Of a stretch of 58,625 nucleotides of DNA, positions 10,653-26,772 are shown piece by piece. The notes below the pieces were generated by a model that saw only the letters and a program-made list of their open reading frames with translations, ran no database searches and was not told the origin of the DNA. Numbering within the stretch: the stretch's first letter is position 1; every line of letters begins with the position of its first letter. Source of the stretch: an uncultured Clostridia bacterium (lineage in GTDB: Bacteria > Bacillota > Clostridia > Christensenellales > UBA1242); NCBI GenBank assembly GCA_947624415.1, contig CANQKH010000007.1:1-58625 (forward strand). The letters are read 5' to 3'. Position numbers and translations under genes: made by a program.

Positions 10653-10689
10653 ATAGTATTTTGTATAAAAGAAAAACTACAATATAAAG

Positions 10690-10735
10690 AAAAATTCACC
10701 AGTAGATAAAAACATATAAATGGTGAATTTTTTTA
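10690..10735. terminator. Bidirectional intrinsic terminator
   Basis: AAAATTCACCA pairs with TGGTGAATTTT and has A- and T-runs on both sides. It serves the metallopeptidase gene on the plus strand and the mini-ferritin gene on the minus strand. Confidence 0.85.
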
Positions 10736-10759
10736 TTGAATGTAAGATATTATGTAATT

Positions 10760-11050: not shown

Positions 11051-11112
11051 TTTACCTCCTATAAGTTTATATGAGTATGAAATGAAATTGTGATAGGTTT
11101 AAGAAATAAATC

Positions 11113-11141
11113 TTGACTTTATACACTTTTATTAGTATAAT
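11113..11141 (+). promoter_or_regulatory. Promoter of LE-tail cluster A
   Basis: TTGACT at 11113-11118 and TATAAT at 11136-11141 are separated by 17 bp, 55 bp before the first gene of the cluster. The promoter of cluster B has the same two hexamers and spacing. Confidence 0.8.
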
Positions 11142-11196
11142 ATATGTTATAAATAAATGTCCTTAAATATAAATTAAAGATTTTAAAGGAGAGAAA

Positions 11197-11673
11197 ATGC
11201 AATACGACAATATTTATCAATATAAAATATTTTATTTCGACAAAGCAAGCAAGCGGGCTATTAATATTTATAGCGACAGTGCCGACATTCACTCTCTTCA
11301 AAACTTACCTGACACAACCTTTTATGTTGAACAGTTTTACCTTGCTAGTAGAGATGGGGAAAGGCCATATAAAGGGTCTTATCTCGTTGGAAAACCGCTT
11401 GGGATTGAGGAGATTGAAAAAGAAATAGAACTTATAGAACACTCAGATGATTTGTCTTACCTTAAATATTTAGAAAGAATACTTGAACTAAAATCTCACA
11501 ATGAAGCATCTTACACGATATTTAGAATACAAGGAAAACTTATATATTTATATAAAAATGAGTATGAAGGTGAACTTGCCGGTGAGATTAAGGATGGAAA
11601 GATAGTTAAGGAGGATTTGCAAGCAGAGGAACAACCTCCAGAACACAATTATAATTACATCGACCTTGAATAG
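11197..11673 (+). CDS. LE-tail family protein A1
   Basis: This 158-residue protein is the first of seven intact plus-strand relatives of similar size. Shared blocks are an N-terminal MQYDNIYxYxIFY strand, SDSADIHSLQNLPDTTFYVE at residues 27-46, YLVGKPLGIEEIEKEI near 63-78, FRIQGKLIYL near 109 and GEIKDGKIV near 128. A short Glu/Pro-rich linker then leads to the C-terminal tail NYNYIDLE. It has no signal peptide, membrane segment or catalytic motif. Family and function are not recognised. It is first in the operon, behind a TTGACT/TATAAT promoter. Confidence 0.85.
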   Translation: MQYDNIYQYKIFYFDKASKRAINIYSDSADIHSLQNLPDTTFYVEQFYLASRDGERPYKGSYLVGKPLGIEEIEKEIELIEHSDDLSYLKYLERILELKSHNEASYTIFRIQGKLIYLYKNEYEGELAGEIKDGKIVKEDLQAEEQPPEHNYNYIDLE

Positions 11674-11721
11674 AAATAATATTTTGTTTACAAGGCAGGA
11701 AATTTAAAAAAAGGGGAAAGA

Positions 11722-12279
11722 ATGCAATACGACAATATTTATATGTTTGATATACTTTACGAGGATAAGAATGGGAAGGATGCTTTCTTTAAAATTTATA
11801 GTGATAAAGCAAATGTATATGCTCTTGAAAATTTACCTGATACGACCTATAAGATTGAAAGAAGACATTTACTGAAAGATTTTGATGGTAATTTTTCCTT
11901 TACTTATAGTATGTATGATGAGGATTTTTTTGATGACACCACTTTAGATGAATATTGGGTTGGGCAAAAACTGACGCTTACAGATTTAAAAACGGAAATT
12001 AAGACAGCCACCGATAAAAAATATCGCGATCGCTTGAACCATTGGTATAACAGCATGACCAATGATGGTGATGATTGTAATACTATAATATTAAAACTAA
12101 AAAACAATCACATTATATTTGTAAACATTGACCCGAAAAGGGTTGTTGGCGTCATTAATGGTGGCAAGATTGTTAGGCAAGGATTACAAACCAAACAACC
12201 TGCACAAACAAAACAGCCCCCACAAAAACAATCTGTAAAAAGTAAATATGATAATGATAATTACATCGACCTTGAATAG
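11722..12279 (+). CDS. LE-tail family protein A2
   Basis: This 185-residue member starts MQYDNIYMF like A1 and keeps the SDKANVYALENLPDTTYKIE block near residues 28-47 and the YWVGQKLTLTDLKTEI block near 77-92. An insertion (DEDFFDDTTLDE) between them is not found in A1. After GGKIVRQG a low-complexity Gln/Pro/Lys linker (QTKQPAQTKQPPQ) leads to the tail YDNDNYIDLE. The linker makes the tail look like a separately presented element. The start follows AAGGGGAAAG. Function is unknown. Confidence 0.85.
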   Translation: MQYDNIYMFDILYEDKNGKDAFFKIYSDKANVYALENLPDTTYKIERRHLLKDFDGNFSFTYSMYDEDFFDDTTLDEYWVGQKLTLTDLKTEIKTATDKKYRDRLNHWYNSMTNDGDDCNTIILKLKNNHIIFVNIDPKRVVGVINGGKIVRQGLQTKQPAQTKQPPQKQSVKSKYDNDNYIDLE

Positions 12280-12294
12280 AAATTTTGATTACAA
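12244..12294 (+). repeat. 51-bp direct repeat at the A2/A3 junction (copy 1)
   Basis: The tail-coding end of A2 and the following intergenic bases are identical over 51 bp to 12792-12842 at the A3/A4 junction, while the bodies of the two genes have diverged. This indicates recent recombination or gene conversion at the tails. Confidence 0.9.
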
Positions 12295-12320
12295 GGCAAA
12301 AACTTTTAAAAGGAGAAAGA

Positions 12321-12827
12321 ATGCAATTCAAAAATGTTTTTCGTTTTAAGATATTTTATATTAACGAAGAAGGCAATAAAGACTATTTTTATATTTATAG
12401 TGAAAAAGAGGACGTCTATTCTCTTGAAGATTTGCCAGACACAACTTTTTATATTGAACGGTTTTACTGCACACATAAAGAGGAGAGTAGGTCATTTGGA
12501 TCTTATCTCGTTGGGACACCGCTTAGCATTGATGAACTTAAAAAAGAAATAAAAAATACAGATATTTCGGCGAGATCATATCTCCATGATTTATCGTCAG
12601 CATATCGAAGAATAACTGAACTGGGATCAAATTATCATATACTTAGAAAACAAGGGAAACTAATATGTTTGGATAAGCTTTATTTCCCAGGCGAAAATGT
12701 TGGCGAGATAAACGATGGTAAGATTGTAATGCAAGGAGCGCAAACAAAACAACCCGCACAAATTAAACAACCCGTAAAAAGTATAAAAAGCAAATATGAT
12801 AATGATAATTACATCGACCTTGAATAG
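12321..12827 (+). CDS. LE-tail family protein A3
   Basis: This 168-residue member (MQFKNVFRFKIFY) has blocks SEKEDVYSLEDLPDTTFYIE, SYLVGTPLSIDELKKEI, RKQGKLICLDK and GEINDGKIV in the same order as A1. A QTKQPAQIKQPVK linker precedes the tail YDNDNYIDLE. The ATG at 12321 is chosen because AAAAGGAGAAAG precedes it; an in-frame ATG 36 bp upstream has no ribosome-binding site. No enzymatic motif is visible. Confidence 0.85.
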   Translation: MQFKNVFRFKIFYINEEGNKDYFYIYSEKEDVYSLEDLPDTTFYIERFYCTHKEESRSFGSYLVGTPLSIDELKKEIKNTDISARSYLHDLSSAYRRITELGSNYHILRKQGKLICLDKLYFPGENVGEINDGKIVMQGAQTKQPAQIKQPVKSIKSKYDNDNYIDLE

Positions 12828-12842
12828 AAATTTTGATTACAA
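12792..12842 (+). repeat. 51-bp direct repeat at the A3/A4 junction (copy 2)
   Basis: This is the second identical copy of the segment at 12244-12294. It encodes the tail of A3 and the start of the intergenic spacer. Confidence 0.9.
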
Positions 12843-12862
12843 AAACTTTAAAAGGAAAAAAA

Positions 12863-13357
12863 ATGCAATACGATAATATTTATTTGTTTAGAATTCTTTA
12901 TTCTGATAAGAATGGGTTTGAGGAAGAATACAAAACTTATTCTGATAATGACAATGTATATTCTCTTGAAAATTTACCAGAAACGACATATTTTATTGAG
13001 GTATATCTTTTAAAGAAGGATTTTAAAGACATTCAAGGCGAAGATACTGTTGGCAATTATCTTATTGGAACTCCTCTTAAGATCGAAGATTTAGAAAAAG
13101 AGATAAAAACTGTTGCTGCAACAAGCCCCGACTCAAAATACCTTCAAGACTTGAAGGGGTGGCATTATGAAATAGAAACATTAAGATATCCTCACGTTAT
13201 CTTTAGAATACAAGGAAAACTTGTATGTTTAAATAAGTTTATGTATCCTGGCAAGGTTATTGGCGTCATAAAGGATGGAAAAATAGTTGCTGGAGATTTT
13301 CAAAACGAGCAAACAAATGATAAGTATGATAATGATAATTACATTGATCTTGAATAG
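12863..13357 (+). CDS. LE-tail family protein A4
   Basis: This 164-residue member begins MQYDNIYLFRILY and keeps SDNDNVYSLENLPETTYFIE, YLIGTPLKIEDLEKEI, FRIQGKLVCLNK and GVIKDGKIV. The linker is short (NEQTNDK) and the tail is YDNDNYIDLE. The ATG at 12863 is used because an AAAGGAAA site precedes it; the earlier in-frame ATG at 12833 lies upstream of that site. A1 and A4 share the FRIQGKL block more closely than either does with A2, which suggests shuffled segments. Confidence 0.85.
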   Translation: MQYDNIYLFRILYSDKNGFEEEYKTYSDNDNVYSLENLPETTYFIEVYLLKKDFKDIQGEDTVGNYLIGTPLKIEDLEKEIKTVAATSPDSKYLQDLKGWHYEIETLRYPHVIFRIQGKLVCLNKFMYPGKVIGVIKDGKIVAGDFQNEQTNDKYDNDNYIDLE

Positions 13358-13393
13358 ACAAAATATACAAGAAATTTTCAAGAAGGAGAAAAA

Positions 13394-14512
13394 ATGGGTT
13401 ATTATGCAAGGTTGACAAGGGAACTAAAAAATAAAATTATAATAGATGAACAACCTTTGAAAGACGATAAAATTTCATCTGTAAAATTTTTGAATGGAAC
13501 TGATATTGTTGAAATTTATAAAAAGGAAATGCCTGAAGATAAAAATAAACCAATAATTCAGTTGCCAGAATATAAAAAGTTTTATGTTGGGAATTATTAT
13601 CGTTATGAAGATTTCAAACAAAAGCATCCCAGCCTTATAAATGTTTGGGGCGATAAATTAAAGACATGGGATGGTGTTTGCCAAACATTAAGCGAGGGAA
13701 CATTTCATGCTATACCAGACAGAGAAAATTATCCTGTTTTAGAGCCAAAGCAAATTTCTGGAGGGAAATATTATCATTCTCATGGTGATAAGACATATTA
13801 TGTAAAATTTTACAAAAAGAATTTACAGCAGCAAACATCATGGACAGAAAGACTTGAAAGTTTGAGGCTGGAAGACTTAGAAATTGAAGAGGGCGTGTAT
13901 GGCTTTAAAATATATGCCAAAGATGACAGTTGGAAAACGGTTGACGAAAAAAATTATATAATAGGAAGACTTGCAAAGGAAAATGAAATTTTGCAAGCAG
14001 GATATAATCCCCAAAACAACTCAAACACCTATTTACTTACTTCGGCAGGTGTAAAAAGAATGGGAGAAAAGAATTTTATAGTTTTATCCCCAGAAAATAT
14101 AAAAGAAGGAAGATACGTTGAAGATAAAGATAACAATATAACTATAAAATATTATAGAAAACTTAAAGGTGGCGGCGAAAGTCATTGGGAAAGGGATGAC
14201 AATGTGGATGATATTGAAAGTGTTGTTTTTAAACAAGGGCTTTACAGGGTGAAATTTTGCTATAAATTGAAAGATGGGGCAAAATATGACGAGCAAGAAT
14301 TTATTTTAGGAAGAGAAATATCTTCTAAAGATACAATGGAAAATTATCCCGATGTCTATGAAAAATATAAAGATAGAAATCCAATATTTGTCGAGACGCC
14401 ATATGGTGCAACAATAGTGCGATGTGCAAAATGCACAATAATTGCACCTGAGAAACTTGTGAATTTTAAATATGACCCATATAAAGATAAGGATTATGTA
14501 AATCTTGAATAA
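13394..14512 (+). CDS. LE-tail family protein A5, long multidomain member
   Basis: At 372 residues this is the largest member. It seems to contain two or three copies of a beta-rich unit: YKKFYVGNYYRYEDFKQ, then KQISGGKYYHSHGDKTYYVK and ENIKEGRYVEDKDNNITIKY, each followed by a yGfKIY/YRVKFCY strand and a second motif (NYIIGRLAKENE and EFILGREISSKD) that parallels the YxxGxxLsxEE block of the small members. The tail is KDKDYVNLE. No catalytic or membrane motif is visible. The start follows AGAAGGAG. The end of this gene is echoed in the chimeric fragment at 15005-15091. Confidence 0.8.
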   Translation: MGYYARLTRELKNKIIIDEQPLKDDKISSVKFLNGTDIVEIYKKEMPEDKNKPIIQLPEYKKFYVGNYYRYEDFKQKHPSLINVWGDKLKTWDGVCQTLSEGTFHAIPDRENYPVLEPKQISGGKYYHSHGDKTYYVKFYKKNLQQQTSWTERLESLRLEDLEIEEGVYGFKIYAKDDSWKTVDEKNYIIGRLAKENEILQAGYNPQNNSNTYLLTSAGVKRMGEKNFIVLSPENIKEGRYVEDKDNNITIKYYRKLKGGGESHWERDDNVDDIESVVFKQGLYRVKFCYKLKDGAKYDEQEFILGREISSKDTMENYPDVYEKYKDRNPIFVETPYGATIVRCAKCTIIAPEKLVNFKYDPYKDKDYVNLE

Positions 14513-14524
14513 AAGGGAGGGGAA

Positions 14525-14989
14525 ATGAAAATCAAAGAATTATATCAATTTACAATTTTTTACAATCAGAACTTTGAAGGCGAAAGTAAAGAGCGGGTAA
14601 TGCTTTGCGATAGTGATGACATCAGCCAATTGTCAGACTTGCCGCGAAACACCGTGTTTATATGTTGTAAAAAGTATGATGAAAGGGGAAATAATTTCTT
14701 ACCACACAAAAACTACCTGTTTGGAGAGGTTTTGGGATATGATGACCTAAAAGATGAATTTTTTCATTGTAAAAATGAAAAAACGGCAGGTTATATAAAA
14801 TATATAGCATCAAGAAGAAAAGAATTAGAGGGGAAATTCTGCATTTTTAAAAATCACAACAAAATATGTGTTTATAATATTTCTGATGCCGATTGCGATG
14901 TTTTATCGGAAAGCCAACTAGCAAACGGAAGAGTGCTTGTAGAAAATGAAGTCGATTATTCCAATAAAGATTATATTAATTTGGAATAA
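14525..14989 (+). CDS. LE-tail family protein A6
   Basis: This 154-residue member starts MKIKELYQFTIFYNQNF. It has the block SDDISQLSDLPRNTVFICC and a YLFGEVLGYDDLKDEF block near residues 72-87. The unit FKNHNKICVYNISDADCDV, then SESQLANGRV, is shared with A7 (15107), its closest paralogue. The tail is SNKDYINLE. It is cysteine-richer than the A1-A4 group. The start follows GGGAGGGG, 12 bp after A5. Confidence 0.85.
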   Translation: MKIKELYQFTIFYNQNFEGESKERVMLCDSDDISQLSDLPRNTVFICCKKYDERGNNFLPHKNYLFGEVLGYDDLKDEFFHCKNEKTAGYIKYIASRRKELEGKFCIFKNHNKICVYNISDADCDVLSESQLANGRVLVENEVDYSNKDYINLE

Positions 14990-15073
14990 AAAGGAGGAAA
15001 AAGTATGCAATTTGATAAGATTTATATTTTTGAAGTTTTATATTATAATGAAAAGGGAGACATAGCAAAATCA
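14981..15073 (+). repeat. 93-bp perfect direct repeat, copy 1
   Basis: Positions 14981-15073 are identical to 15569-15661, 588 bp away. The repeat spans the end of A6, a ribosome-binding site and the first 23 codons of a gene identical to the start of A8. The flanking genes A6 and A7 are much more diverged, so the identity is recent. Confidence 0.95.
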
Positions 15074-15082
15074 AATTTGTAA
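15005..15082 (+). pseudogene. Truncated and chimeric LE-tail gene remnant
   Basis: A GGAGG site and ATG open a 25-residue ORF whose first 23 codons match A8 at the DNA level. It then ends at NL and a stop. The bases after the break (TTTGTAAATCTTGATTAA, to 15092) read FVNLD and a stop in another frame, resembling the tail codons of A5 (DYVNLE). So the 5' end of A8 appears fused out of frame to the 3' end of another family member, the scar of recombination between paralogues. Confidence 0.8.
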
Positions 15083-15106
15083 ATCTTGATTAAAAATGGA
15101 GGGGAA

Positions 15107-15577
15107 ATGGAAATAAAAAATCTATACAAAATTACAATTTTCTATAATCAAAGATTTGCCAATTTTTGCGACGATAAAATAATATTTAGCGATAGTGATA
15201 ACATTCATAATCTTACAAATCTCCCCGAGGACACTGCTTTTGTGTTTTGTGAAAAATGGGATGACGAAAAAAGAGATTTTGTGGCAGTGAAAAATTATGC
15301 AATAGGACACGAGTTAAATGCACTTGATCTTTATAATGAGTTAGAAAAGCAAACTGACAAAAAGCAAAGAGAGTTTATAGATTATATAATTAATCACATC
15401 TTGCCTATAAATAAAAATCCTAACAAAAAATATTGTATTTTCAAAAATCGCGACAATGTATGTTTTTACAGGATTTCCGATGCCGAATGTGAAGTCTTTC
15501 CAGAGAGCCAACTGGTTAATGGAAGAGTGAATGAGGCTGTCGAAAATACAGAAAAAGATTATATAAGTTTGGAATAA
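15107..15577 (+). CDS. LE-tail family protein A7
   Basis: This 156-residue protein is a close paralogue of A6, sharing IFYNQRF, SDSDNIHNLTNLPEDTAFVF, NYAIGHELNALDLYNEL and FKNRDNVCFYRISDAECEV, then PESQLVNGRV. The tail is TEKDYISLE. The ATG at 15107 follows GGAGGGG; an earlier in-frame ATG at 15086 lies inside the remnant's scar and has no site of its own. It has no recognised domain. Confidence 0.85.
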   Translation: MEIKNLYKITIFYNQRFANFCDDKIIFSDSDNIHNLTNLPEDTAFVFCEKWDDEKRDFVAVKNYAIGHELNALDLYNELEKQTDKKQREFIDYIINHILPINKNPNKKYCIFKNRDNVCFYRISDAECEVFPESQLVNGRVNEAVENTEKDYISLE

Positions 15578-15661
15578 AAAGGAGGAAAAAGTATGCAATT
15601 TGATAAGATTTATATTTTTGAAGTTTTATATTATAATGAAAAGGGAGACATAGCAAAATCA
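15569..15661 (+). repeat. 93-bp perfect direct repeat, copy 2
   Basis: This is the second copy of 14981-15073. It covers the end of A7, the ribosome-binding site and the first codons of A8. Confidence 0.95.
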
Positions 15662-16069
15662 CAGTTATATAGCGATAGTGATGATGTTTATGCACTAAAA
15701 GATTTGCCAGAGGCTACATATGCAATTAATATGTTGGAACGCGACAATGACTTACGCGCTTCTGACAATGGGACAGTATTTAAGAAAACTAAGGAATATT
15801 TTGTGGGCGAGCGAATATCCTTAGAGGAGTTTGAAAAAATAATGGGCAAACTAAACTTAAATCCCTATCAAGCAGACCGTTTGATTGAAGCATATAAGGA
15901 AATGAAGAACGGGAAGGGAAATTACTACATAATTAAAGTGGGTGATGACGCTGCCGATTGCCTTGCTGTGGGTGGCAGAAAGGATATTGGCAGGATAAGA
16001 GATGGAATGATAGTCCCAAAATCCTCGGCGAACAAATATGAGGATAAAGATTATATAGATTTGGAATAG
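15593..16069 (+). CDS. LE-tail family protein A8
   Basis: This 158-residue member begins MQFDKIYIFEVLYYNEKG, closer to the A1-A4 group. It has SDSDDVYALKDLPEATYAI, YFVGERISLEEFEKIM and GRIRDGMIV blocks, then NKYEDKDYIDLE as tail. It is the last gene of cluster A; the next gene, ppdK, has its own promoter. The 5' end lies in the 93-bp repeat and was probably the donor or recipient of a recent conversion. No function is recognised. Confidence 0.85.
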   Translation: MQFDKIYIFEVLYYNEKGDIAKSQLYSDSDDVYALKDLPEATYAINMLERDNDLRASDNGTVFKKTKEYFVGERISLEEFEKIMGKLNLNPYQADRLIEAYKEMKNGKGNYYIIKVGDDAADCLAVGGRKDIGRIRDGMIVPKSSANKYEDKDYIDLE

Positions 16070-16210
16070 GCTTTTAACATTGAGAAGCATAATTTTTAAA
16101 AATAAAAGGAACTCGACATTATTCTTGCAAATAAATATGATATATTTTTGAATTATGCGTTTAAAGAAGTTGTTAAATGTAAAAAAATAAAAAATAATAT
16201 TCAAATTCAT

Positions 16211-16239
16211 TTGGATATTTTTTTTAAATAGTATATAAT
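16211..16239 (+). promoter_or_regulatory. Promoter of ppdK
   Basis: TTGGAT at 16211-16216 and TATAAT at 16234-16239 are separated by 17 bp, 25 bp before the ATG. Confidence 0.7.
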
Positions 16240-16264
16240 TTTATAGTGTTAAAAAGGAGAATAT

Positions 16265-18892: not shown

Positions 18893-18926
18893 CATTGAAT
18901 TTACAGAAATTTCAATTTTATTGCCG

Positions 18927-18961
18927 AAAAAAAATATGGACAGATTTGTCCATATTTTTTT
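18927..18961 (+). terminator. Intrinsic terminator of ppdK
   Basis: AAAATATGGACA pairs with TGTCCATATTTT around a 4-nt loop and is followed by a T-run. Confidence 0.9.
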
Positions 18962-19090
18962 ATGTAAATTTTAAAAGATAAATTATTCCAAACCTTCAAT
19001 CTTTTTGTCAATATTAATTTATTTTTGATATGATTTTGAAAGCAGACAGCCTTTATGACAATTTTTTTAACACCTCTTTTAAAAAATCAC

Positions 19091-19119
19091 TTTACATTTA
19101 AAGAAAACAATGTTATAAT
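19091..19119 (+). promoter_or_regulatory. Promoter of rpoZ
   Basis: TTTACA at 19091-19096 and TATAAT at 19114-19119 are separated by 17 bp, 34 bp before the start codon. Confidence 0.75.
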
Positions 19120-19152
19120 AATCGAGAAATTAATTTTGAGAGGTGATGTATT

Positions 19153-19353
19153 ATGATGATTGAACCATCAATTGATAGTATGCTAAATAAGGTCGGTGGC
19201 AACAGATACGTGCTTTGCAATGTCATTGCCAAGAGGGCGAAGGAGATTGAAAGCGTTCGCAGACTGGAACTTGCAGACCAAGAAAAAAAGTCAATAAGTA
19301 TTGCTTGTGAAGAAGTGGCAACTGGCAAAGTTAAACCAACAGAAATAAAATAA
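19153..19353 (+). CDS. rpoZ: RNA polymerase omega subunit
   Basis: This 66-residue protein matches omega: IEPSIDSMLNKVGGNRYVLCN near the start, then the AKRAKEIE helix and the conserved IACEEVATGKV helix. Omega stabilises the beta-prime subunit. The start is the first of two ATGs after AGAGGTGATG. In many Firmicutes rpoZ lies between gmk and coaBC-priA; here it stands alone between the two LE-tail clusters, far from priA at 50332. Confidence 0.93.
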   Translation: MMIEPSIDSMLNKVGGNRYVLCNVIAKRAKEIESVRRLELADQEKKSISIACEEVATGKVKPTEIK

Positions 19354-19355
19354 GG

Positions 19356-19413
19356 AAAAAACACCATATAGAGAAATGCACCTTTTGGGGCAACTCAAAT
19401 TGGTGTTTTTTTA
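19356..19413. terminator. Terminator between rpoZ and LE-tail cluster B
   Basis: AAAAACACCA (19356-19365) pairs with TGGTGTTTTT (19401-19410) around a 35-nt loop and has T-runs in both orientations, so it can serve the convergent transcripts. Confidence 0.75.
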
Positions 19414-19435
19414 TTAATTTATTGTTAAGCAATAA

Positions 19436-19888
19436 CTATTCCAAATCAAAGTAATCTTTTCCTGAATAACCTGTATATTTATTTTCATTATTAATAAATT
19501 GGGGAGAAATTAATTCTCCATGTCGCTTTGAGCCACATCTTATTCTGTTGTCTATTCCACGATATAGCAGGATAGAAGGGTCATTATATTTAAGAATTGA
19601 TTCAAGGTTGACTTTGTAAATTAAGTCGTTTTTGTCGATGCTTTTGAGTGCTTGCCTTACTTCTTCAATTGTTGCTGGGTAACCAAAGTAGTAGCATTTA
19701 ACTTTCTTTTGTTTTTTTACATCTTGATTAAATCTATCCTTTACAATTATATTCTCTCTCACATCAACAAAGACTATATTGCTTGGAAGATGAAAATCTG
19801 TTATTTCCTTTTCATTACTTTCAATTGAACAATAATTGAGTGCACCATTGCGTTTGCTAGTCCAAAAAATTATTTCGTATTTTTTCAT
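19436..19888 (-). CDS. LE-tail family protein B5
   Basis: This 150-residue protein is the last gene of the minus-strand cluster. It shows the family architecture in diverged form: an opening KKYEIIFWTS strand, NEKEITDFHLPSNIVFVDV near residues 26-44, YYFGYPATIEEVRQAL near 66-81, and a C-terminal SPQFINNENKYTGYSGKDYFDLE region of which the last nine residues are the tail. A basic KKQKKVKC stretch precedes the second block. The start follows TGGAGGT. No function is recognised. Confidence 0.8.
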   Translation of the reverse strand: MKKYEIIFWTSKRNGALNYCSIESNEKEITDFHLPSNIVFVDVRENIIVKDRFNQDVKKQKKVKCYYFGYPATIEEVRQALKSIDKNDLIYKVNLESILKYNDPSILLYRGIDNRIRCGSKRHGELISPQFINNENKYTGYSGKDYFDLE

Positions 19889-19899
19889 CTTACCTCCAA

Positions 19900-20334
19900 T
19901 TACTCTAAGTCTAAATATGAATTGTCGGTCTGAGTTGCTTTGAGAAGTTGCATATTAAACTTTCCTGTTTTAATGACCATGGGGTCTACAAGGGTGCCTT
20001 CGACTACGTAAAAGAAATTGTCGACACCTTTAAAGATTGGGGAATCACCCAAAAAGTAGGCTTCTATATATAAATACCAATCTTTTGGTTCAAGAGTAGG
20101 GGTTGGACTTGGCAAAACTTCTTTTTCATTTTGCCATTCGCTTTTGTCTGCCAAATATCCAAAACTATATGCTTTAACAATTTTATTGTTATAAATCCCT
20201 TTTTCTGCGAACCTAACAAATATTGTGGATGGCGGGAGATTCAAATTAGTAATATCGGTTGAGAGTGTTGTCAATTTTATATTTTGCAATTTTTTGTCTT
20301 TCGTGAATATTATTTCAACCTCATAATTTTTCAT
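19900..20334 (-). CDS. LE-tail family protein B4
   Basis: This 144-residue member has an opening KNYEVEIIFTKDKK strand, STDITNLNLPPSTIFVRF near residues 26-43, and AYSFGYLADKSEW in place of the YxxG block. A Pro-rich LPSPTPTLEPKD stretch follows. The end is QTDNSYLDLE. The ATG at 20334 is preferred because GAGGTG precedes it at close range and overlaps the stop codon of the upstream gene; a GTG 6 bp further upstream is possible. The family is unknown. Confidence 0.8.
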   Translation of the reverse strand: MKNYEVEIIFTKDKKLQNIKLTTLSTDITNLNLPPSTIFVRFAEKGIYNNKIVKAYSFGYLADKSEWQNEKEVLPSPTPTLEPKDWYLYIEAYFLGDSPIFKGVDNFFYVVEGTLVDPMVIKTGKFNMQLLKATQTDNSYLDLE

Positions 20335-20341
20335 TTTCACC

Positions 20342-21139
20342 TCACTCTAAATTAATATAACTTTTGTCTTCGTAAGGACGATAAAAACCATCCTTGTTAA
20401 TAAATGATGGATTTAAAAATGTAATTTCATTGGCTGGGTGAGTAAGAGAATGAAATGTAGTTAAATTAAACCTGCATAATCCATTATTTTGCTCTGCTTT
20501 TTTTAAAAGGATTTCGTTGTTTGGAAATTCATATTTAATTCTTTCTGGGGAATAGAATTCGCCGAAATAATATATTTTTCTGTCATTTATTGTCTTGCCT
20601 GGGGTAAAACTGAAAATAATTGCCTTTCTTACTTTTTTTGGCAGTTGTATATTTTCTATTTCCAAACCATCGATTTTTTCTTCACATCTTTCTATATTAA
20701 AATCATTTTCATACTCAAATCTTACAAAATTTGTAGTTGATAAAAGAGATTGTCCAATTTTGCCATGCAAATAACCTTTTTCATCAATATTATTTTCATC
20801 TATAAAGTCAACTGAGCATTTGCCGTTTTTATATGGATATACTTCATTTTCACGCGTTAAAAGTGCTTTTTGAGCATTTTCTTTTAGCAAAAACTTAAAT
20901 TTTGATGAATTTTCACCGAATTTATCTTTAATTTCCTCTTTACTTACAATTTTTCCTATTTTGTATATATGTTCGCTTACTATGGCCTCTCCAAAATCTT
21001 GACTTATAACTCCTTGAATTCTTATGCTTGAAACATCATTTGGAATTTGTTTGAAGTTTAGCATATTGATGTTTGAGATTATTCCTTCTCGTGAATAATT
21101 TCCATTTGAGTTATATGAAACTATTTGATAATTTATCAT
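20342..21139 (-). CDS. LE-tail family protein B3, two-domain member
   Basis: At 265 residues this protein carries two family units. The first (about 1-130) includes INMLNFKQIPNDVSSIRI and YKIGKIVSKEEIKDKFGE, followed by a NIDEKGYL motif. The second (about 140-265) includes LEIENIQLPKKVRKAIIF and YYFGEFYSPERIKYEF, then SFINKDGFYRP and the tail YEDKSYINLE. The KFGE/IDEKGYL pair is shared with B1. Two units but one tail show that the tail belongs to the protein end, not to each domain. The start follows GAGGTG. Confidence 0.8.
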   Translation of the reverse strand: MINYQIVSYNSNGNYSREGIISNINMLNFKQIPNDVSSIRIQGVISQDFGEAIVSEHIYKIGKIVSKEEIKDKFGENSSKFKFLLKENAQKALLTRENEVYPYKNGKCSVDFIDENNIDEKGYLHGKIGQSLLSTTNFVRFEYENDFNIERCEEKIDGLEIENIQLPKKVRKAIIFSFTPGKTINDRKIYYFGEFYSPERIKYEFPNNEILLKKAEQNNGLCRFNLTTFHSLTHPANEITFLNPSFINKDGFYRPYEDKSYINLE

Positions 21140-21148
21140 AATTCACCT

Positions 21149-21880
21149 CTATTCAAGTTCCAAATAGGAAAGGCGGTCAGGCTCAAAAAAGCCTTCATTA
21201 TTAAAAGCATTTGGTGGCAAAATTTTTACATTTTTTTCTGTAATAGGGAAAACTTTTTGTTTAGAATCCATAAACGCCTGTTTAATATTGAATTTTTGCA
21301 TATACTCGAATGCTCTTAAATTTAATTTAGCCACCTCTTCTAAGGAAAGGGAAGTGCCAATAGCAAATAATTCTACATTTATTTTTTCGTAATCTGGAGT
21401 TAAATCATAAAGTTCGATGAAGTTGGCAGTTTGCCAATTATCTGTTATTTTGACCTTAGTTATATCGTGATTTTGGAGATTGAATTTTCTAATATATCCT
21501 TCTGTATGTGGATAGTCAATAGTATAAGCGATGTGGCATAATTGCTTAGGCTGGGTTAGATTTAATTCTTGAGGAGAAATTATATTTGTTCGATTGCTAA
21601 AATTTATAGTTGGACCATTAAAAAGTTTAAGCCAAGACTTAGGTCCTTCATTTGTGGCTTGCTTATTGTCTTCATTTTGATATACAATATCGCCAATAAG
21701 AAATGATTTTGAGTGATTGTCGTCGGGGTAGTCAAGAAAAATCATATTTACGTCATCAGGCAGTTTTAATTTTTTTATATCATCAATTTCTGTGTATATA
21801 GAACCAATTTCCTCATAATTGCCTTTTAAAAACTGCACTCTAATTTTTGTAGACGGGGTGTATATATGCTTAATTTTCAT
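21149..21880 (-). CDS. LE-tail family protein B2, two-domain member
   Basis: This 243-residue protein has two family units. Unit one has IDDIKKLKLPDDVNMIFLDY and SFLIGDIVYQN; unit two has NWQTANFIELYDL followed by LFAIGTSLSLEEVAKL near residue 185. It then shows FNNEGFFEP and the tail PDRLSYLELE. The ATG at 21880 follows GGAG; an in-frame ATG 12 bp earlier overlaps that site. It has no membrane segment or catalytic motif. Confidence 0.8.
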   Translation of the reverse strand: MKIKHIYTPSTKIRVQFLKGNYEEIGSIYTEIDDIKKLKLPDDVNMIFLDYPDDNHSKSFLIGDIVYQNEDNKQATNEGPKSWLKLFNGPTINFSNRTNIISPQELNLTQPKQLCHIAYTIDYPHTEGYIRKFNLQNHDITKVKITDNWQTANFIELYDLTPDYEKINVELFAIGTSLSLEEVAKLNLRAFEYMQKFNIKQAFMDSKQKVFPITEKNVKILPPNAFNNEGFFEPDRLSYLELE

Positions 21881-21920
21881 TAAAATCTCCATTTTTGTTA
21901 TTTTTTATAATAAGTAAATG

Positions 21921-22352
21921 TTATTCAAGCCACAGATAATTTTTATCGCAATTATTAATTAAAAATCCTTTTTCATCAATAGAATTTACATTAATACAAG
22001 TTGCACCCAACTTTGACATTAAAGGTGAGAAAGTTCCATCTTTAAGCAAAATTATGTTTTGTAAGTTGTTTTCTATAATAAATTTTTCTTCTTGGGAAAA
22101 TTCACCAAATTTTATTTGTGCTTCTTGTGCGGAGAGTTGGCTTCCAATACAATAAAATTCAACATTCAAAGGCTTTGAATATGCATAGTCTGTCAACTTT
22201 TGTTTTTCGCAAAGTGTTACAACGTCTGCATTTTGAGGTATGCAAACTTTAAAAATATCTTTTTGCTCAATTTCTACTTCATGATATATTGGTGTAATCA
22301 AATTACTTTTTGAAAATTTATAGAAATTTGCATAATATTTCACTTCGTTCAT
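21921..22352 (-). CDS. LE-tail family protein B1
   Basis: This 143-residue protein is the first gene of cluster B. It opens MNEVKYYANFYKF and has IEQKDIFKVCIPQNADVVTL near residues 28-47 and FYCIGSQLSAQEAQIKFGE near 66-84. The NSIDEKGFL motif is shared with B3, and the tail is NCDKNYLWLE, the most deviant of the set, with Trp in the variable position. The ATG at 22352 follows AAGGAG; upstream in-frame codons lack a site. It is transcribed from the TTGACT/TATAAT promoter at 22391-22419. Confidence 0.8.
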   Translation of the reverse strand: MNEVKYYANFYKFSKSNLITPIYHEVEIEQKDIFKVCIPQNADVVTLCEKQKLTDYAYSKPLNVEFYCIGSQLSAQEAQIKFGEFSQEEKFIIENNLQNIILLKDGTFSPLMSKLGATCINVNSIDEKGFLINNCDKNYLWLE

Positions 22353-22390
22353 AATTCTCCTTATATTTAGTAGCATAAATAATTAATATA

Positions 22391-22419
22391 ATTATAGCAA
22401 TTAATTAAATAAAAGTCAA
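22391..22419 (-). promoter_or_regulatory. Promoter of LE-tail cluster B
   Basis: Read on the minus strand, TTGACT (22414-22419) and TATAAT (22391-22396) are separated by 17 bp. It is divergent from the promoter at 22453-22481 and identical in hexamers and spacing to that of cluster A. Confidence 0.8.
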
Positions 22420-22452
22420 TATATATTAAATCACCTTAAATTGGAATAAATC

Positions 22453-22481
22453 TTGACAGGGAAAATTTTGTATGATATAAT
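22453..22481 (+). promoter_or_regulatory. Consensus promoter of the 22502 gene
   Basis: TTGACA at 22453-22458 and TATAAT at 22476-22481 match the vegetative consensus fully with 17-bp spacing. Confidence 0.85.
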
Positions 22482-22501
22482 AAACATATAAAGGAGCAAA
22501 G

Positions 22502-23035
22502 ATGAAAAAAGTTGATAAATTATTGGCACAAGACAGACGAACGCACTCGATGGTAGAGTATGAGAATGCTATCAATTCTTTTATAGGCGAAAATCAAAAC
22601 AAAGAAGATATGAAGGAAGATGTAAAACTTGCCAAGGTTTTAAGATTTTATATTGAGTTTTATGGAAGCATAAGAGATAAGGAAAGATATGATTTTATTG
22701 GAGATGTCCTCGACTATTACACAAATATTGTTCCAAATAAAAATGACATATTCCAAAGACCTACAATTGAATTTCATATCCCAGCAAAAATAAGGAAATT
22801 GCTATACAAAGGTTTTGTAGAATTTAATAAAAACAGAGAAATTGAATTAAAAAAGGATGCAGAAGAATTGCTACTTCCACTTACAGAGAATGAGAAACTT
22901 TTAAAGACACTAATACTTGAAGAATACAAAAAACAATTATTACAAAAATTTTTAGAACAAAAAACACCTTCAGCGTCAGATAAAAACAAACAGCCTTCAT
23001 TAGAAGGAGAAGAAATAGATTTGGGAAATGATTAA
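22502..23035 (+). CDS. Hypothetical alpha-helical protein
   Basis: This soluble, Lys/Glu-rich 177-residue protein is predicted by eye to be mostly helical (AKVLRFYIEFYGSIRDKERYD, then a long helix at 120-155). It ends in a Ser/Pro-rich segment and EGEEIDLGND. The end faintly recalls the IDLE tail but does not terminate in LE, so I do not count it as a family member. It has a perfect consensus promoter and its own terminator, suggesting strong expression. No function is recognised. Confidence 0.75.
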   Translation: MKKVDKLLAQDRRTHSMVEYENAINSFIGENQNKEDMKEDVKLAKVLRFYIEFYGSIRDKERYDFIGDVLDYYTNIVPNKNDIFQRPTIEFHIPAKIRKLLYKGFVEFNKNREIELKKDAEELLLPLTENEKLLKTLILEEYKKQLLQKFLEQKTPSASDKNKQPSLEGEEIDLGND

Positions 23036-23054
23036 TAATTCATTTCCCTTTTTT
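23023..23054 (+). terminator. Intrinsic terminator after the 22502 gene
   Basis: GGGAAATGA pairs with TCATTTCCC and is followed by TTTTTT. The 5' arm lies in the last codons of the gene. Confidence 0.85.
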
Positions 23055-23102
23055 ATTTGTATTTTTAAATTATTTATGCTAAAATAAAGCGATGGAGGAA
23101 TT

Positions 23103-23480
23103 ATGAAAAAATTAGTCTTTTATAAATGCGAAATATGTGGAAACATAGCAATTAAACTTGTTGACAAAAATGTTCCTATTTTTTGTTGTGGCAAGGCCAT
23201 GCAGGAAATAGTCCCAAATACTCAGGAAGGAGCAACAGAAAAACACATCCCAGTTGTAAACAAAAATGGAAATTCTGTTCACGTTATGGTTGGTCAAGTC
23301 AGCCATCCTATGAACGAGGACCACTACATATCTCATATAATATGTGAGAGCGAAAAAGGATTTTCTGTTCAATCGTTATCGCCAAATGATAAACCTGAAT
23401 GCACTTTTGTTTTGCGGGAAGGTGATGAAGTGAAAAATGTTTACAGCATGTGTAACTTGCACGGCCTTTGGAGAAATTAG
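23103..23480 (+). CDS. dfx: Desulfoferrodoxin (superoxide reductase)
   Basis: This 125-residue protein has every metal ligand of two-domain desulfoferrodoxin at or near its usual number: C9, C12, C28 and C29 for the FeCys4 desulforedoxin centre, and H48, H68, H74, C117 and H120 for the His4Cys active iron. The enzyme reduces superoxide to peroxide without making oxygen, using electrons from rubredoxin-like donors, and is typical of anaerobes. A GGAGG site precedes the ATG. The next gene begins 8 bp downstream, but a functional link with it is not evident. Confidence 0.97.
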   Translation: MKKLVFYKCEICGNIAIKLVDKNVPIFCCGKAMQEIVPNTQEGATEKHIPVVNKNGNSVHVMVGQVSHPMNEDHYISHIICESEKGFSVQSLSPNDKPECTFVLREGDEVKNVYSMCNLHGLWRN

Positions 23481-23488
23481 GGGGATAA

Positions 23489-23884
23489 ATGGCTAAAAGA
23501 AGCAATTCAAAACAGGCAAGCAAAAAATTTAATTTGCTTATATTTATTATTGCTCTTTCCCTTGTTTTGGGTGGAATAGTGGGCTACTTTACGGGATGGG
23601 CATTAATTAAAAATGATAAGTTTGTGATAAATGGAGAAAGTATAATTGAAGTTTTCATCGGGGAAAGTTATGAAGACGAAGGTGCGATTGCCATATCATT
23701 TGGAAAAGATGTGTCAAGCAAAATAAAAACAGAAAGCAATGTCAATTACGATGAAGAAGGGAATTATTACATAAAATATACAGTTGACAACATTCGTTAT
23801 AGAGGGGTTGAACGTTACAGGACAATAATTGTAAAGGCGGCGGCGGAAGAGGCTCATGTTGAGGTGCAGTATGAAAAAAGGTAA
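23489..23884 (+). CDS. Membrane-anchored Ig-like (DUF5011-type) protein
   Basis: This 131-residue protein has a basic N terminus, one transmembrane helix at about 15-36 (LLIFIIALSLVLGGIVGYF) and a single extracytoplasmic beta-sandwich with the motif VFIGESYEDEGAIAISF and later YYIKYTVDN, as in DUF5011 bacterial Ig-like domains. Its 3' end overlaps the next gene by 14 bp, so the two are translationally coupled and probably act together at the cell surface. Confidence 0.8.
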   Translation: MAKRSNSKQASKKFNLLIFIIALSLVLGGIVGYFTGWALIKNDKFVINGESIIEVFIGESYEDEGAIAISFGKDVSSKIKTESNVNYDEEGNYYIKYTVDNIRYRGVERYRTIIVKAAAEEAHVEVQYEKR

Positions 23885-24980
23885 AATATTTTTATATTGC
23901 ATATTAGCATTTATTGTTTTTTGCGTAGGCTGTCTTGCAACGTTTGGAGTTTATACATTAATTTTGGCAAAGCCAGAAAGCGACGTTTATATATCTGGTG
24001 ATTTATCAATTCATTTTATGGAACTAGGCAATAAATATGTTGGAGATTCCATTTATATAAAATGTGGAGAGAATGATATACTTATAGACGCCGGTTCGCG
24101 TCAAGATAGTGCAGAAACTATAATAAATTATGTTGATGAATATGTCGATGACAACAAACTTGAATACGTTATTGCGACACATGGCCATCAAGACCATATT
24201 GCGGCATTTGTTAGCACAGGCAAAAAAGATGGCATTTTCGACCATTACAAAGTGGGAACAATAATTGATTTTCCAATAAGCAACTCAAATTCTGAAATTC
24301 TTCAAAAATACAGAAGTGCGGTGGAGAAAGAGGTTAATGATGGAGCAACTCACTATACAGCACTTGAGTGTTTCAATAATCAAAAAGGAGCATTGAGGAA
24401 GTATCAACTTTCTCCAAGTGTAGAACTTGAAATATTATACAATTATTACTATGAAAATCAAAGTAATGATGAAAATAATTATTCTGTATGCGTAATGATA
24501 AATCAAGGAGAAAATCATTATTTGTTTACTGGCGACCTTGAAGAAGATGGAGAAAGAAAACTGGTAAAATATTATGATGATAATTTTGGTGGCCTGCCTC
24601 ATTGCGTGTTGTATAAAGCGGGGCATCATGGCTCAGGAACATCAAGCACTGAAGAACTTTTGAGTGCTATAAAGCCGGAAATAGTTTGTATTTGCACCTG
24701 TGCCGGCACTTGTGAATACACCCAAAATAAAGACAACCAATTCCCATATCAAGTAACTGTTGATAAACTTGCAAAATATACAGATGCCGTTTATGTAACC
24801 TCAGTTGTAGATGTTTATTCAAATGTCAAAAGTGAATACACGGTAAAATCAATGAATGGGAATATAGTGTTTACAGTAAAAAATGGTAAATATGAAATTT
24901 CATGCAGTAATAATAATTTAAAACTTAAAGATACAGATTGGTTTAAAAACAATCGTAGATGTCCGGCAGAATGGAAATAA
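23871..24980 (+). CDS. Membrane-anchored metallo-beta-lactamase-fold hydrolase (ComEC C-domain-like)
   Basis: This 369-residue protein has an N-terminal membrane anchor (residues 5-30) and an outward MBL domain. Motifs are ILIDAGS near 73, the zinc motif THGHQDH near 104-110, a central TGDLEEDG that supplies the bridging Asp, and KAGHHGSGTSS later. This is the arrangement of the ComEC/Rec2 C-terminal domain and related stand-alone extracellular nucleases or phosphodiesterases. The start at 23871 follows GAGGTG. The substrate is unknown. A CTCAGTCEYT Cys pair near 280 may be a disulfide. Confidence 0.85.
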   Translation: MKKGKIFLYCILAFIVFCVGCLATFGVYTLILAKPESDVYISGDLSIHFMELGNKYVGDSIYIKCGENDILIDAGSRQDSAETIINYVDEYVDDNKLEYVIATHGHQDHIAAFVSTGKKDGIFDHYKVGTIIDFPISNSNSEILQKYRSAVEKEVNDGATHYTALECFNNQKGALRKYQLSPSVELEILYNYYYENQSNDENNYSVCVMINQGENHYLFTGDLEEDGERKLVKYYDDNFGGLPHCVLYKAGHHGSGTSSTEELLSAIKPEIVCICTCAGTCEYTQNKDNQFPYQVTVDKLAKYTDAVYVTSVVDVYSNVKSEYTVKSMNGNIVFTVKNGKYEISCSNNNLKLKDTDWFKNNRRCPAEWK

Positions 24981-24983
24981 AAT

Positions 24984-25019
24984 AAAAAACGTCTCTTATA
25001 AATTTTGAGGCGTTTTTTA
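24984..25019. terminator. Bidirectional intrinsic terminator
   Basis: AAAAAACGTCTC pairs with GAGGCGTTTTTT (one G-T) between convergent genes. Confidence 0.9.
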
Positions 25020-25020
25020 T

Positions 25021-25710
25021 TTACTCTAAGTTTATATAAAGTCCATTAAAGTCGTCATTATTTTGCCCGGCAACATAATTTTTTTCGATATTATCTAAAA
25101 GAGGCTGGAGATATCTATAATCATATAAAGAATTAATGACCATAATGGGCGATGAGGTGAACTGTAAATAATTTTTCACGCAAGGCTCTTGTGGATTTTG
25201 ATTTATCACTCTTTCTACAAAAGGCTTTAAATTCAAATAGTCCTTAATATAATTATAGACGGTTTGATAATTTTCGACCATATCATTTATTTTGTCTTCA
25301 CCATATTTTGAGTATGCCGATTTAATTATTGCTAAGTTCTCCTTTGCAAGATCTACTATGCTCTTGAAGTTTTTTACACCAAGTATTTGTTCAGGAATGT
25401 TTTCAGTAGGGCTTGTTTGGTGATCTCTAACAAATTGTTCAAGATAATTTTTTTTATACTCAAAAAAAGTTTTGTCTACTTTTCCAAAGGTAAGGTTATA
25501 AATTAAAGTTGTAGAGTTTGACAAATTTACACATTGAGAGTTCATGATTAAGATTGTTTGATCTCCCATTCCATTGTCTGTCAAACTTTTTGCAATTTCG
25601 ATATAAAGTTTCCATTTTTCAACATAATCTTTTATAGGTGCTATATCTATCTCTTTGCAAGGATATGAAGACAAAAAGCGTGCGAAATTCTTGACGGCGT
25701 CAAAAGACAT
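25021..25710 (-). CDS. LE-tail protein with an unrelated helical body
   Basis: This 229-residue protein appears almost wholly alpha-helical (for example YVEKWKLYIEIAKSL and YSKYGEDKINDMVENY) and lacks the LP and YxxGxxL blocks of the cluster A and B proteins. Yet it ends NDDFNGLYINLE, the same C-terminal tail. There is no signal peptide. The start follows GGAGGAA. It is the key evidence that the tail is a module independent of the body. Function is unknown. It lies just downstream of the 25761 gene on the same strand and may share its transcript. Confidence 0.8.
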   Translation of the reverse strand: MSFDAVKNFARFLSSYPCKEIDIAPIKDYVEKWKLYIEIAKSLTDNGMGDQTILIMNSQCVNLSNSTTLIYNLTFGKVDKTFFEYKKNYLEQFVRDHQTSPTENIPEQILGVKNFKSIVDLAKENLAIIKSAYSKYGEDKINDMVENYQTVYNYIKDYLNLKPFVERVINQNPQEPCVKNYLQFTSSPIMVINSLYDYRYLQPLLDNIEKNYVAGQNNDDFNGLYINLE

Positions 25711-25760
25711 AAGTTTCCTCCTGCATTTATAATAGCATTTTTTGCCTAAAAAGTCAATAA

Positions 25761-26627
25761 TTATAAATCGTCTTGTATCTCTTTTATTTTGTCATCTTCC
25801 ATTGAAAATGTGTAAATTATATCTTTATTGTCTGACAGGGCAAAACAGGAGCATGGGTCAATCATGCAAAAATAACTTACATCACCGAAAAAGCCTTTTA
25901 GTGCCTTAGAGTCAAGTTGGGTTTTCATGTCATAACTAAGCAAGTCTCTTGCCCCATAATAATCACCACATTTTATAAAGCACATAAATTTATATGGGAT
26001 AAGTTCGGCAGGCATAACTTCACTTTTACGTGCAAAGTTTTCTTCTTTAATTTTCAGTCCATCTCTATCTATTATATATTTATGAGTGGAACTATTATAA
26101 TTTTCATTTTCGTTAAAAAGCGAAAATCCATTTTCTTCCATCACCAAATTATCAGAAGAGAAGATTTTTGCCGAGTTATTTCTGGTGTTGTAGCAAATAA
26201 TAACTTTTTTATCTAAATCGTCAAATTTAACATAGTTGATATGATAAAAGTTGCCCACACTTACATTAGAAATGGGGCGAGTAAGATTTATAGTTTTCTT
26301 GCCGTCAAGGCCGCAAAAAATTATTTGTTTTTGTCCAACTTCAACAGAGGTGCTTTCTCCATCATATTTTACGTTATGCACTCTTGTGTTTTCTGCAGAA
26401 TAGCCATCAAGCAAGAAAATTAGACGCCTGTCTTCTTTTTCAATAATCCTATAAAAAGGTGATGTTTGCGAGTCTATTTCAAATGAAAATTTTTCACGCC
26501 CACTTGGGAAAATGTAAATTGGCATTGAAACGTCGTCCAAGACGAGATGTTCATTTATTGAAATATGTTCTTTGTTTTCTCCATATTTGACTATGCAAGG
26601 AAAGGAGGTGTAAATTATTGTTTTCAT
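25761..26627 (-). CDS. Hypothetical protein
   Basis: This 288-residue protein looks beta-rich in the first 200 residues and helical after that, with a cysteine-containing MIDPCSCFALSD stretch near 264. It has no signal peptide or membrane segments. The N terminus KTIIYTSFPCIVKYGENKEHI resembles a hypothetical family I have seen in clostridia, with no known role. The ATG at 26627 has only a weak upstream site; a strong GGAGG-like sequence reads on the opposite strand here. It precedes the LE-tail helical protein by 50 bp. Confidence 0.7.
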   Translation of the reverse strand: MKTIIYTSFPCIVKYGENKEHISINEHLVLDDVSMPIYIFPSGREKFSFEIDSQTSPFYRIIEKEDRRLIFLLDGYSAENTRVHNVKYDGESTSVEVGQKQIIFCGLDGKKTINLTRPISNVSVGNFYHINYVKFDDLDKKVIICYNTRNNSAKIFSSDNLVMEENGFSLFNENENYNSSTHKYIIDRDGLKIKEENFARKSEVMPAELIPYKFMCFIKCGDYYGARDLLSYDMKTQLDSKALKGFFGDVSYFCMIDPCSCFALSDNKDIIYTFSMEDDKIKEIQDDL

Positions 26628-26772
26628 ATCTTAAAATATGAATTGATAAAGATATTAATTACATTTTTTGTCAAATTTTGTTTTAAGGGTTTATAAAATC
26701 ATTAATTTTGGGTTAACTTTATGTATAAATTATTTTTCATATGTCGATAATTTGCTCGAGGAGTGAAAGAAT

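What the first reader, a model, noticed from the sequence alone, without database searches (positions are those of the whole stretch)
11197..25710. A family of small proteins with a fixed C-terminal LE tail, in two clusters
Seven intact genes on the plus strand besides one long member (11197-11673, 11722-12279, 12321-12827, 12863-13357, 13394-14512, 14525-14989, 15107-15577, 15593-16069) and five on the minus strand (19436-22352) encode proteins whose bodies diverge strongly but whose last residues are almost fixed: NYIDLE, DYVNLE, DYINLE, DYISLE, DYFDLE, SYLDLE, SYINLE, SYLELE, NYLWLE. A sixth minus gene at 25021 shares it. Body blocks (D[IV]xxLxxLP and YxxGxxLsxEE) recur in order, so clusters A and B are homologous. 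A fixed tail on fast-changing bodies, often after a Pro/Gln linker, looks like a recognition signal for export, assembly or degradation. I know of no described system like this.
Basis: partly seen in the sequence, partly recalled or inferred. Interest (0 to 1): 0.9.

Follow-up and report, generated by a model that had tools for sequence, protein, structure and literature searches.

The report
Shared C-terminal tag on unrelated proteins
Two related, uncultured gut-type bacteria put the same short tail, ending in tyrosine-x-x-leucine-glutamate, on dozens of proteins with very different bodies, which looks like a new address label, perhaps for secretion.

Summary
All 14 genes in the window end Y-x-x-L-E. 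The tail is not confined to one family. A pattern-directed, incomplete catalogue holds 65 proteins ending YxxL[ED] (30 in the window's genome G000, 35 in its relative G047) in 19 sequence-defined body groups. Elsewhere it is at background: 150 ORFs in stretches not chosen for tails gave 1, and 144 ORFs of another genome of the genus gave 0. Exact YIDLE-stop occurs 11 times in G000 and at most once in 395 other genomes of the order (G047 not drawn).

Selection acts on amino acids. Between the two genomes tail proteins have median 59% identity against 83% for other proteins, yet 15 of 16 complete pairs keep the motif. None of the 65 has an N-terminal hydrophobic segment. Near-consensus promoters are common (16 of 23 vs 3 of 73).

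Best reading: a C-terminal export or targeting tag read by a secretion ATPase. It fits the type VII F/YxxxD/E signal, and of 73 same-genus genomes only the two tail species gave a second EssC-like match. But those ATPases are only 27% identical, helical partners are not established, and no receptor is shown.

The parts
11197..11673 (+). tail protein A1, 158 aa, ends NYIDLE
   Evidence: near-consensus promoter upstream
11722..12279 (+). tail protein A2, 185 aa, ends NYIDLE
12321..12827 (+). tail protein A3, ends NYIDLE
12863..13357 (+). tail protein A4, ends NYIDLE
13394..14512 (+). tail protein, 372 aa, body not found by a profile of the short A proteins, ends DYVNLE; G047 orthologue ends DFTYLE
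14525..14989 (+). tail protein, 154 aa, ends DYINLE
14992..15081 (.). remnant of a duplicated gene start (copy of 15580-15669)
15107..15577 (+). tail protein, ends DYISLE
15593..16069 (+). tail protein, 158 aa, ends DYIDLE
19436..19888 (-). tail protein B1, ends DYFDLE
   Evidence: found by the cluster A profile without tails
19900..20340 (-). tail protein B2, ends SYLDLE
20342..21139 (-). tail protein B3, 265 aa, ends SYINLE
21149..21892 (-). tail protein B4, ends SYLELE
21921..22376 (-). tail protein B5, ends NYLWLE (start 22352 or 22376)
22502..23035 (+). divergent neighbour of cluster B, 177 aa, no tail, also next to cluster B in G047 (51% identity), near-consensus promoter
25021..25710 (-). 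tail protein, 229 aa, body not found by the cluster A profile, ends LYINLE
43443..45497 (+). VirD4/TraG-type coupling protein, candidate reader of the tag
   Evidence: PF02534 5.2e-34; a match in 72 of 73 same-genus genomes

Best explanation
The last ten or so residues, about [YF]-x-[DN]-[KDN]-[SND]-[YF]-[IL]-[DE]-L-[ED]-COOH, are a transferable C-terminal address tag (well supported) that directs a large set of leaderless, apparently soluble and well transcribed proteins out of the cytoplasm (inferred). The tag is most likely docked by an FtsK/HerA-superfamily secretion ATPase that reads a C-terminal peptide (inferred). Of two candidates, an EssC-like ATPase is slightly preferred, because the tail satisfies the type VII F/YxxxD/E pattern including F and D variants and because, of 73 genomes of the genus searched, a second EssC-like match was found only in the two tail species. 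The other candidate is the genus-wide VirD4/VirB4 pair. Bodies diversify quickly, as effectors or surface antigens would, while the tag stays fixed.
For: 65 proteins with YxxL[ED] ends in 19 body groups, among them LRR_5 and, below cut-off, DUF6273-like bodies. Columns not used for selection are informative too: -4 is I or L in 52 of 65, -3 is D or E in 48, -6 is S, N or D in 58, -10 is Y in 27. Leu at -2 uses both CTN and TTR, Ser at -6 both TCN and AGT, and there is no conservation after the stop, so the constraint is on protein. 15 of 16 complete orthologue pairs keep the motif while the 18 pairs sit at median 59% identity against 83% for 65 other pairs. 0 of 65 have an N-terminal hydrophobic segment, against 28 of 149 background ORFs. 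Variants YxxLD, FxxLE and FxxLD occur, as in the F/YxxxD/E motif that T7SS partner proteins need and whose T7SSa counterpart interacts with EccC (PMC10730906, passages). Of 73 same-genus genomes only G000 and G047 have a second match to the G000 EssC-like ATPase; TIGR03928 agrees for the 55 it covered. The G000 ATPase lies on the contig of a tail cluster. 16 of 23 tail transcription-unit heads carry near-consensus promoters against 3 of 73 background heads.
Against: No transport, localisation or binding is shown. The two EssC-like ATPases share only 27% identity, and the G047 one lies on a contig with an integrase-like gene (by eye). Neither has a predicted transmembrane segment, and no EssB or EsaA was recognised beside them. 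Pfam gives no WXG100 match for the three small genes after the G000 ATPase, and for the one small G047 gene scanned only 14.7 bits against a cut-off of 27.3, so calling them WXG100-like rests on size, place and a W-D-D motif. Genes near the G000 ATPase lie on G047 contig C59 without an ATPase; G047 is 72% complete, so this is inconclusive. G101 and G084 in the order also have a second match without tail enrichment. The 16 tail bodies scanned match no WXG/LXG family. Leu at -2 is not part of the T7SS motif, and F/YxxxD/E ends without that Leu are few. Among window non-tail heads 4 of 17 also have the promoter match.
Confidence: 0.45

Rival explanations
1. The tag is read by the genus-wide VirD4/VirB4 type IV machinery as a C-terminal translocation signal (a special case that overlaps the best explanation).
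For: VirD4 lies in the window and is matched in 72 of 73 same-genus genomes, with one match in 45 of them and in many of the rest two pieces of one frame; a VirB4-like gene is matched in 73 of 73. Both have hydrophobic segments in G000. T4SS signals are often C-terminal (PMC3297438, passages), and acidic Glu-rich tails recruit Legionella effectors through DotM (PMC5802825, passages).
Against: Distribution does not match: almost the whole genus has VirD4 and VirB4, two genomes have the tail. The review passage describes positively charged or hydrophobic C-terminal clusters, while the last 25 residues here average net charge -3.5.
Confidence: 0.2
2. The tag is an assembly or docking peptide that gathers the proteins on one intracellular or surface scaffold without translocation.
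For: Fixed terminal peptide, linker rich in Q, D, E and P, strongly hydrophobic stretch in only 1 of 65; proteins with glycine-rich hydrophobic stretches lie next to tail genes.
Against: No scaffold identified; gene arrays of fast-diverging paralogues suit effectors or antigens better than structural parts (inference).
Confidence: 0.22
3. The tag is a C-terminal degron.
For: C-terminal peptides do serve as degrons in bacteria (recalled).
Against: Near-consensus promoters on the same genes and restriction to two species argue against a housekeeping degradation signal; the proteases that read such signals are widespread (recalled).
Confidence: 0.06
4. The tail is a DNA-level element (gene-conversion or recombination site) or a by-product of recent duplication.
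For: Two cluster A 3' ends are 98% identical over 59 nt.
Against: Third codon positions vary, Leu and Ser use both of their codon families, and there is no conservation after the stop; the tail is on many body groups on several contigs.
Confidence: 0.03

Closest known systems
Type VII (ESX/T7SSb) F/YxxxD/E C-terminal secretion motif
   Same: C-terminal aromatic-x-x-x-acidic pattern; leaderless substrates; an EssC-like ATPase in both tail genomes
   Different: Exactly terminal, Leu at -2 fixed, on bodies that match no WXG/LXG family where scanned, no T7SS membrane partners recognised
VirD4/Dot-Icm type IV secretion C-terminal signals (positively charged/hydrophobic, or Glu-rich E-block)
   Same: Short, acidic C-terminal signal on diverse bodies; coupling protein present
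   Different: Strict five-residue motif; coupling protein distribution does not match tag distribution
Type IX CTD, LPXTG and PEP-CTERM sorting tags (recalled)
   Same: Shared C-terminal sorting module on unrelated proteins
   Different: Those use a larger C-terminal domain or a transmembrane stretch plus an N-terminal signal peptide (recalled); no N-terminal hydrophobic segment in 65 proteins here

Membership tests
Type VII secretion substrate | C-terminal F/YxxxD/E motif | tested here: met
   65 proteins YxxL[ED] plus FxxLE and FxxLD variants; motif definition from PMC5311947 and PMC10730906 passages. Positions -5, -2 and -1 of the 65 are fixed by selection of the set; ends of the motif without Leu are few.
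Type VII secretion substrate | Helical WXG100/LXG/PE bundle in the substrate or partner | tested here: not met
   No WXG or LXG family on 16 of the 65 tail proteins scanned with Pfam (8, 8); the other 49 were not scanned with Pfam and structures were not predicted
Type VII secretion system | EssC/EccC-type ATPase in the genome | tested here: inconclusive
   G000 C10 ATPase matches TIGR03928 at 97.9 bits against a cut-off of 778.4; no transmembrane segment
Type VII secretion system | WXG100 partner proteins beside the ATPase | tested here: inconclusive
   Three small genes follow the G000 ATPase, one with W-D-D and YADEE, but Pfam gives no WXG100 match
Type VII secretion system | Membrane partners (EssB, EsaA, EssA) | tested here: inconclusive
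   None recognised among the genes scanned downstream of the ATPase; not searched genome-wide
Type IV secretion effector | VirD4-type coupling protein and VirB4 present | tested here: met
Type IV secretion effector | Positively charged or hydrophobic C-terminal cluster | tested here: inconclusive
   Mean net charge of last 25 residues -3.49 vs +0.13 in background, so not positive; hydrophobic residues at -4 and -2
Type IV secretion effector | Signal distribution tracks the coupling protein | tested here: not met
   VirD4 matched in 72 of 73 same-genus genomes; tail enriched in 2
LPXTG / sortase substrate | N-terminal signal peptide and C-terminal hydrophobic stretch | tested here: not met
   0 of 65 with N-terminal hydrophobic segment; 1 of 65 with any strongly hydrophobic stretch
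C-terminal degron | Tag shortens protein lifetime | not testable with these tools
   needs an experiment

The most novel reading that the evidence does not exclude
A lineage-specific secretion signal of a new kind: a strictly terminal [YF]xxL[ED] peptide that alone, without a helical partner domain, sends thirty or more proteins per genome, from many unrelated families, through an EssC-like or VirD4-like ATPase.
Probability: 0.3. Interest if true: 0.9.

Novelty: new variant of a known kind. Interest (0 to 1): 0.73.

Why it matters
If the tag is an export signal, its simplicity (a few nearly fixed terminal residues) makes it a direct handle on how FtsK/HerA-family secretion ATPases choose substrates, and it lists, in two uncultured bacteria, dozens of candidate secreted proteins without a recognisable N-terminal signal. 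If it is a docking tag, it points to an unknown scaffold. Either way the tag turns a set of unknown proteins into one testable system.

Tried and rejected
Spore-coat targeting: disfavoured, because 16 of 23 tail-gene unit heads have sigma-A-type promoters, although the genome carries sporulation genes (SpoIIP; others by eye).

Phage or plasmid origin: no relative in viral contigs by A3, no exact match of one tail pattern in viral contigs, no tblastn match of one A protein in plasmids or phages, no viral relative of the ATPase. For the 14 window members PHROGs gave two unnamed families, one member each (E 0.0025 and 0.0056), PADLOC nothing. No Rfam family in 10500-26800.

The G049 match as a tail-less homologue: the profile hit (E 5.1e-8) is not supported by pairwise comparison (E 0.051), so I do not lean on it.

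DNA-level element: rejected by codon evidence. PDB sequence search with the family profile gave nothing below E 0.29. Papers: searches listed no paper whose title or abstract start describes a shared terminal YxxLE tag; this covers open-licence PMC text and those terms only, and the listings were capped.
Full report
Observation. Aligned, they agree at Y, L and E of the last five residues and nearly at three other columns. A degenerate DNA pattern for [DNSG]-Y-x-x-L-E-stop gave 17 places in the 1.45-Mb genome (90% complete) and none for the reversed control. Ten lie in the window. Of the seven outside, C5:1108 ends in TGG and C8:5423 matches no ORF listed; the remaining five are the ends of ORFs.

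Extent. I fetched fifteen 20-kb stretches of the same genome, five around tail hits and ten not chosen for tails. The ten gave 150 ORFs of at least 80 aa, of which one ends YxxLE; 144 ORFs from G050, another genome of the genus, gave none. With further stretches from G000 and G047, mostly chosen around pattern hits, the catalogue reached 67 ORFs ending Y-x-x-x-[ED], 65 of them with Leu at -2: 30 in G000 and 35 in G047. It is incomplete for both genomes. Two further ORFs have Phe instead of Tyr and end FTYLE and FTDLD (counts). F/YxxxD/E ends without Leu at -2 are few: 7 of 419 ORFs in G000, 3 of 165 in G047, 2 of 170 in G043 plus G050; the last set has no [FY]xxL[DE] end.

The bodies. With the last 16 residues removed, BLASTP and phmmer single linkage at E 1e-3 sorted the 65 proteins into 19 groups, the largest of 25. 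Of 16 scanned, Pfam recognises BspA-type LRR_5 in two and, below its cut-off, DUF6273 in a third; the others have no family over its cut-off. Clusters A and B share at most a weak common body: a profile of cluster A without tails finds 19436 at E 4e-6 and 21149 at 7.5e-4, other window B genes marginally, 13394 and 25021 not at all; profile comparison gives 24% probability, E 8.5e-4. The 97.7% is not independent, because two B proteins were in that alignment.

The tail is a protein feature. At -2 leucine is encoded by CTN in 34 and TTR in 31 of 65 genes. Serine at -6 uses TCN (23) and AGT (3). Third positions vary, and the 18 bases after the stop show no conservation. Because the set was selected on -5, -2 and -1, those columns are fixed by construction. 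The unselected ones still carry signal: -4 I or L 52 of 65, -3 D or E 48, -6 S, N or D 58, -10 Y 27.

Tail kept, bodies lost. Reciprocal best hits between fetched stretches of G000 and G047 gave 18 pairs in which at least one partner carries the tail, at median 59.0% identity, and 65 other pairs at median 82.9%. Two of the 18 are cut at contig ends. Of the other 16, 15 keep [FY]xxL[ED] in both; the exception ends YEELE in one and YEELQ in the other.

Distribution. Over 121 genomes the first pattern gave 17 in G000, 10 in G047 and at most 3 in any other. A wider pattern gave 41 against 18 controls in G000 and 46 against 13 in G047. In G049, G037, G043, G055 and G041 it was below control, and in G050 it was 13 against 9. 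Exact YIDLE-stop in 396 genomes of the order (G047 not drawn) occurs 11 times in G000 and once each in five others. A profile of the window proteins matches G000, G047 and, weakly and not confirmed pairwise, G049. The name Lapin suggests a rabbit source (inference). So, as far as searched, this is a system of two related Clostridia; no tree was built.

Properties. None of the 65 has an N-terminal hydrophobic segment, against 28 of 149 background ORFs; the last 25 residues average net charge -3.49 against +0.13. Of 23 transcription-unit heads with tails, 16 have a near-consensus TTGAC...TATAAT promoter, against 3 of 73 background heads, 2 of 45 when the background is limited to ATG starts and at least 100 aa, and 4 of 17 non-tail heads in the window; nucleotide shuffles match 9 times in 4,600. 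This suggests strong vegetative transcription and argues against a spore-coat role and a plain degron.

Which machine. (a) Type IV: the window holds a VirD4-type coupling protein, NCBIfam's CD1115 type just under its cut-off (243.9 against 250). It is matched in 72 of 73 same-genus genomes and a VirB4-like gene in all 73, so it cannot by itself explain a tail limited to two species. (b) Type VII: the tail satisfies F/YxxxD/E, the C-terminal motif of T7SS partner proteins (PMC10730906 and PMC5311947, passages only). TIGR03928 finds one match far under its cut-off, which I take to be SpoIIIE/FtsK, in nearly every genome, but within the 55 same-genus genomes covered a second one only in G000 and G047. 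The G000 ATPase used as a query over all 73 gives the same two. In G000 it lies at C10:44546-47413 on the contig of a tail cluster and is followed by three small genes, one with a WDD motif and YADEE near its end; Pfam does not call any of them WXG100. Against this link: the G047 ATPase is 27% identical and lies on a contig with an integrase-like gene (by eye), small WXG100-like genes (one scanned: 14.7 bits, below cut-off) and a glutamine-deamidase toxin domain; neither ATPase has a transmembrane segment; genes near the G000 ATPase lie on G047 contig C59 without an ATPase, though that contig is short and G047 72% complete; and G101 and G084 have a second match without tails. The two tail species are related, so the co-occurrence counts as one or two events, not as 73 independent trials.

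Conclusion. That the peptide is a modular C-terminal tag is well supported. That it is an export signal is the most likely of several uses (about 0.45 for export through an FtsK/HerA-type ATPase, type VII-like slightly ahead of type IV). I do not file it as a type VII substrate family, because the helical domain was tested on 16 members and not found, nor as a type IV effector family, because its distribution does not follow the coupling protein. Structure prediction, which might have shown the folds, was not available.

Noticed in passing
window 43443-45497; G000:C9:19284-20414 (L081 1176-3953): A VirD4-type coupling protein and a VirB4-like ATPase on different contigs of G000 are matched in 72 of 73 and 73 of 73 genomes of the genus, as if a type IV apparatus had become a resident part of this genus; in G000 VirD4 lies among sporulation-type genes (SpoIIP, others by eye).
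   Followed up: partly
L036 2435-3686; L087 555-5607: About 200-aa proteins with glycine-rich hydrophobic stretches and charged C-termini often ending near Y[ST]EE[IV]E, two in G000 and seven in G047, next to tail genes.
   Followed up: no
L036 12252-14810; L086 2399-5020: A surface-type protein next to tail clusters in both genomes; the G000 one has a Peptidase M60 domain, the G047 one is its reciprocal best hit at 70%.
   Followed up: no
L132 5880-7961 and related loci: An AAA_5 ATPase with a DUF6273-like region; relatives in 22 of 73 same-genus genomes, several each in G000, G047 and G043.
   Followed up: partly
L046 7763-19144: A 3,793-aa lipoprotein-like surface protein (by eye) next to the VirB4 gene.
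   Followed up: no
L133 (G047 C27): Integrase-like, ThiF- and JAB-like genes (by eye), an EssC-like ATPase, small WXG100-like proteins and a papain-fold glutamine-deamidase toxin domain.
   Followed up: partly
L040 5553-7238; L089 2126-3811: A 561-aa protein pair beside another tail protein ends DEFLE in G000 and GDYLE in G047, close to but not matching the tag.
   Followed up: no
window 57125-57832: A 235-aa protein with a near-consensus promoter ends VPELE, without the tyrosine.
   Followed up: no
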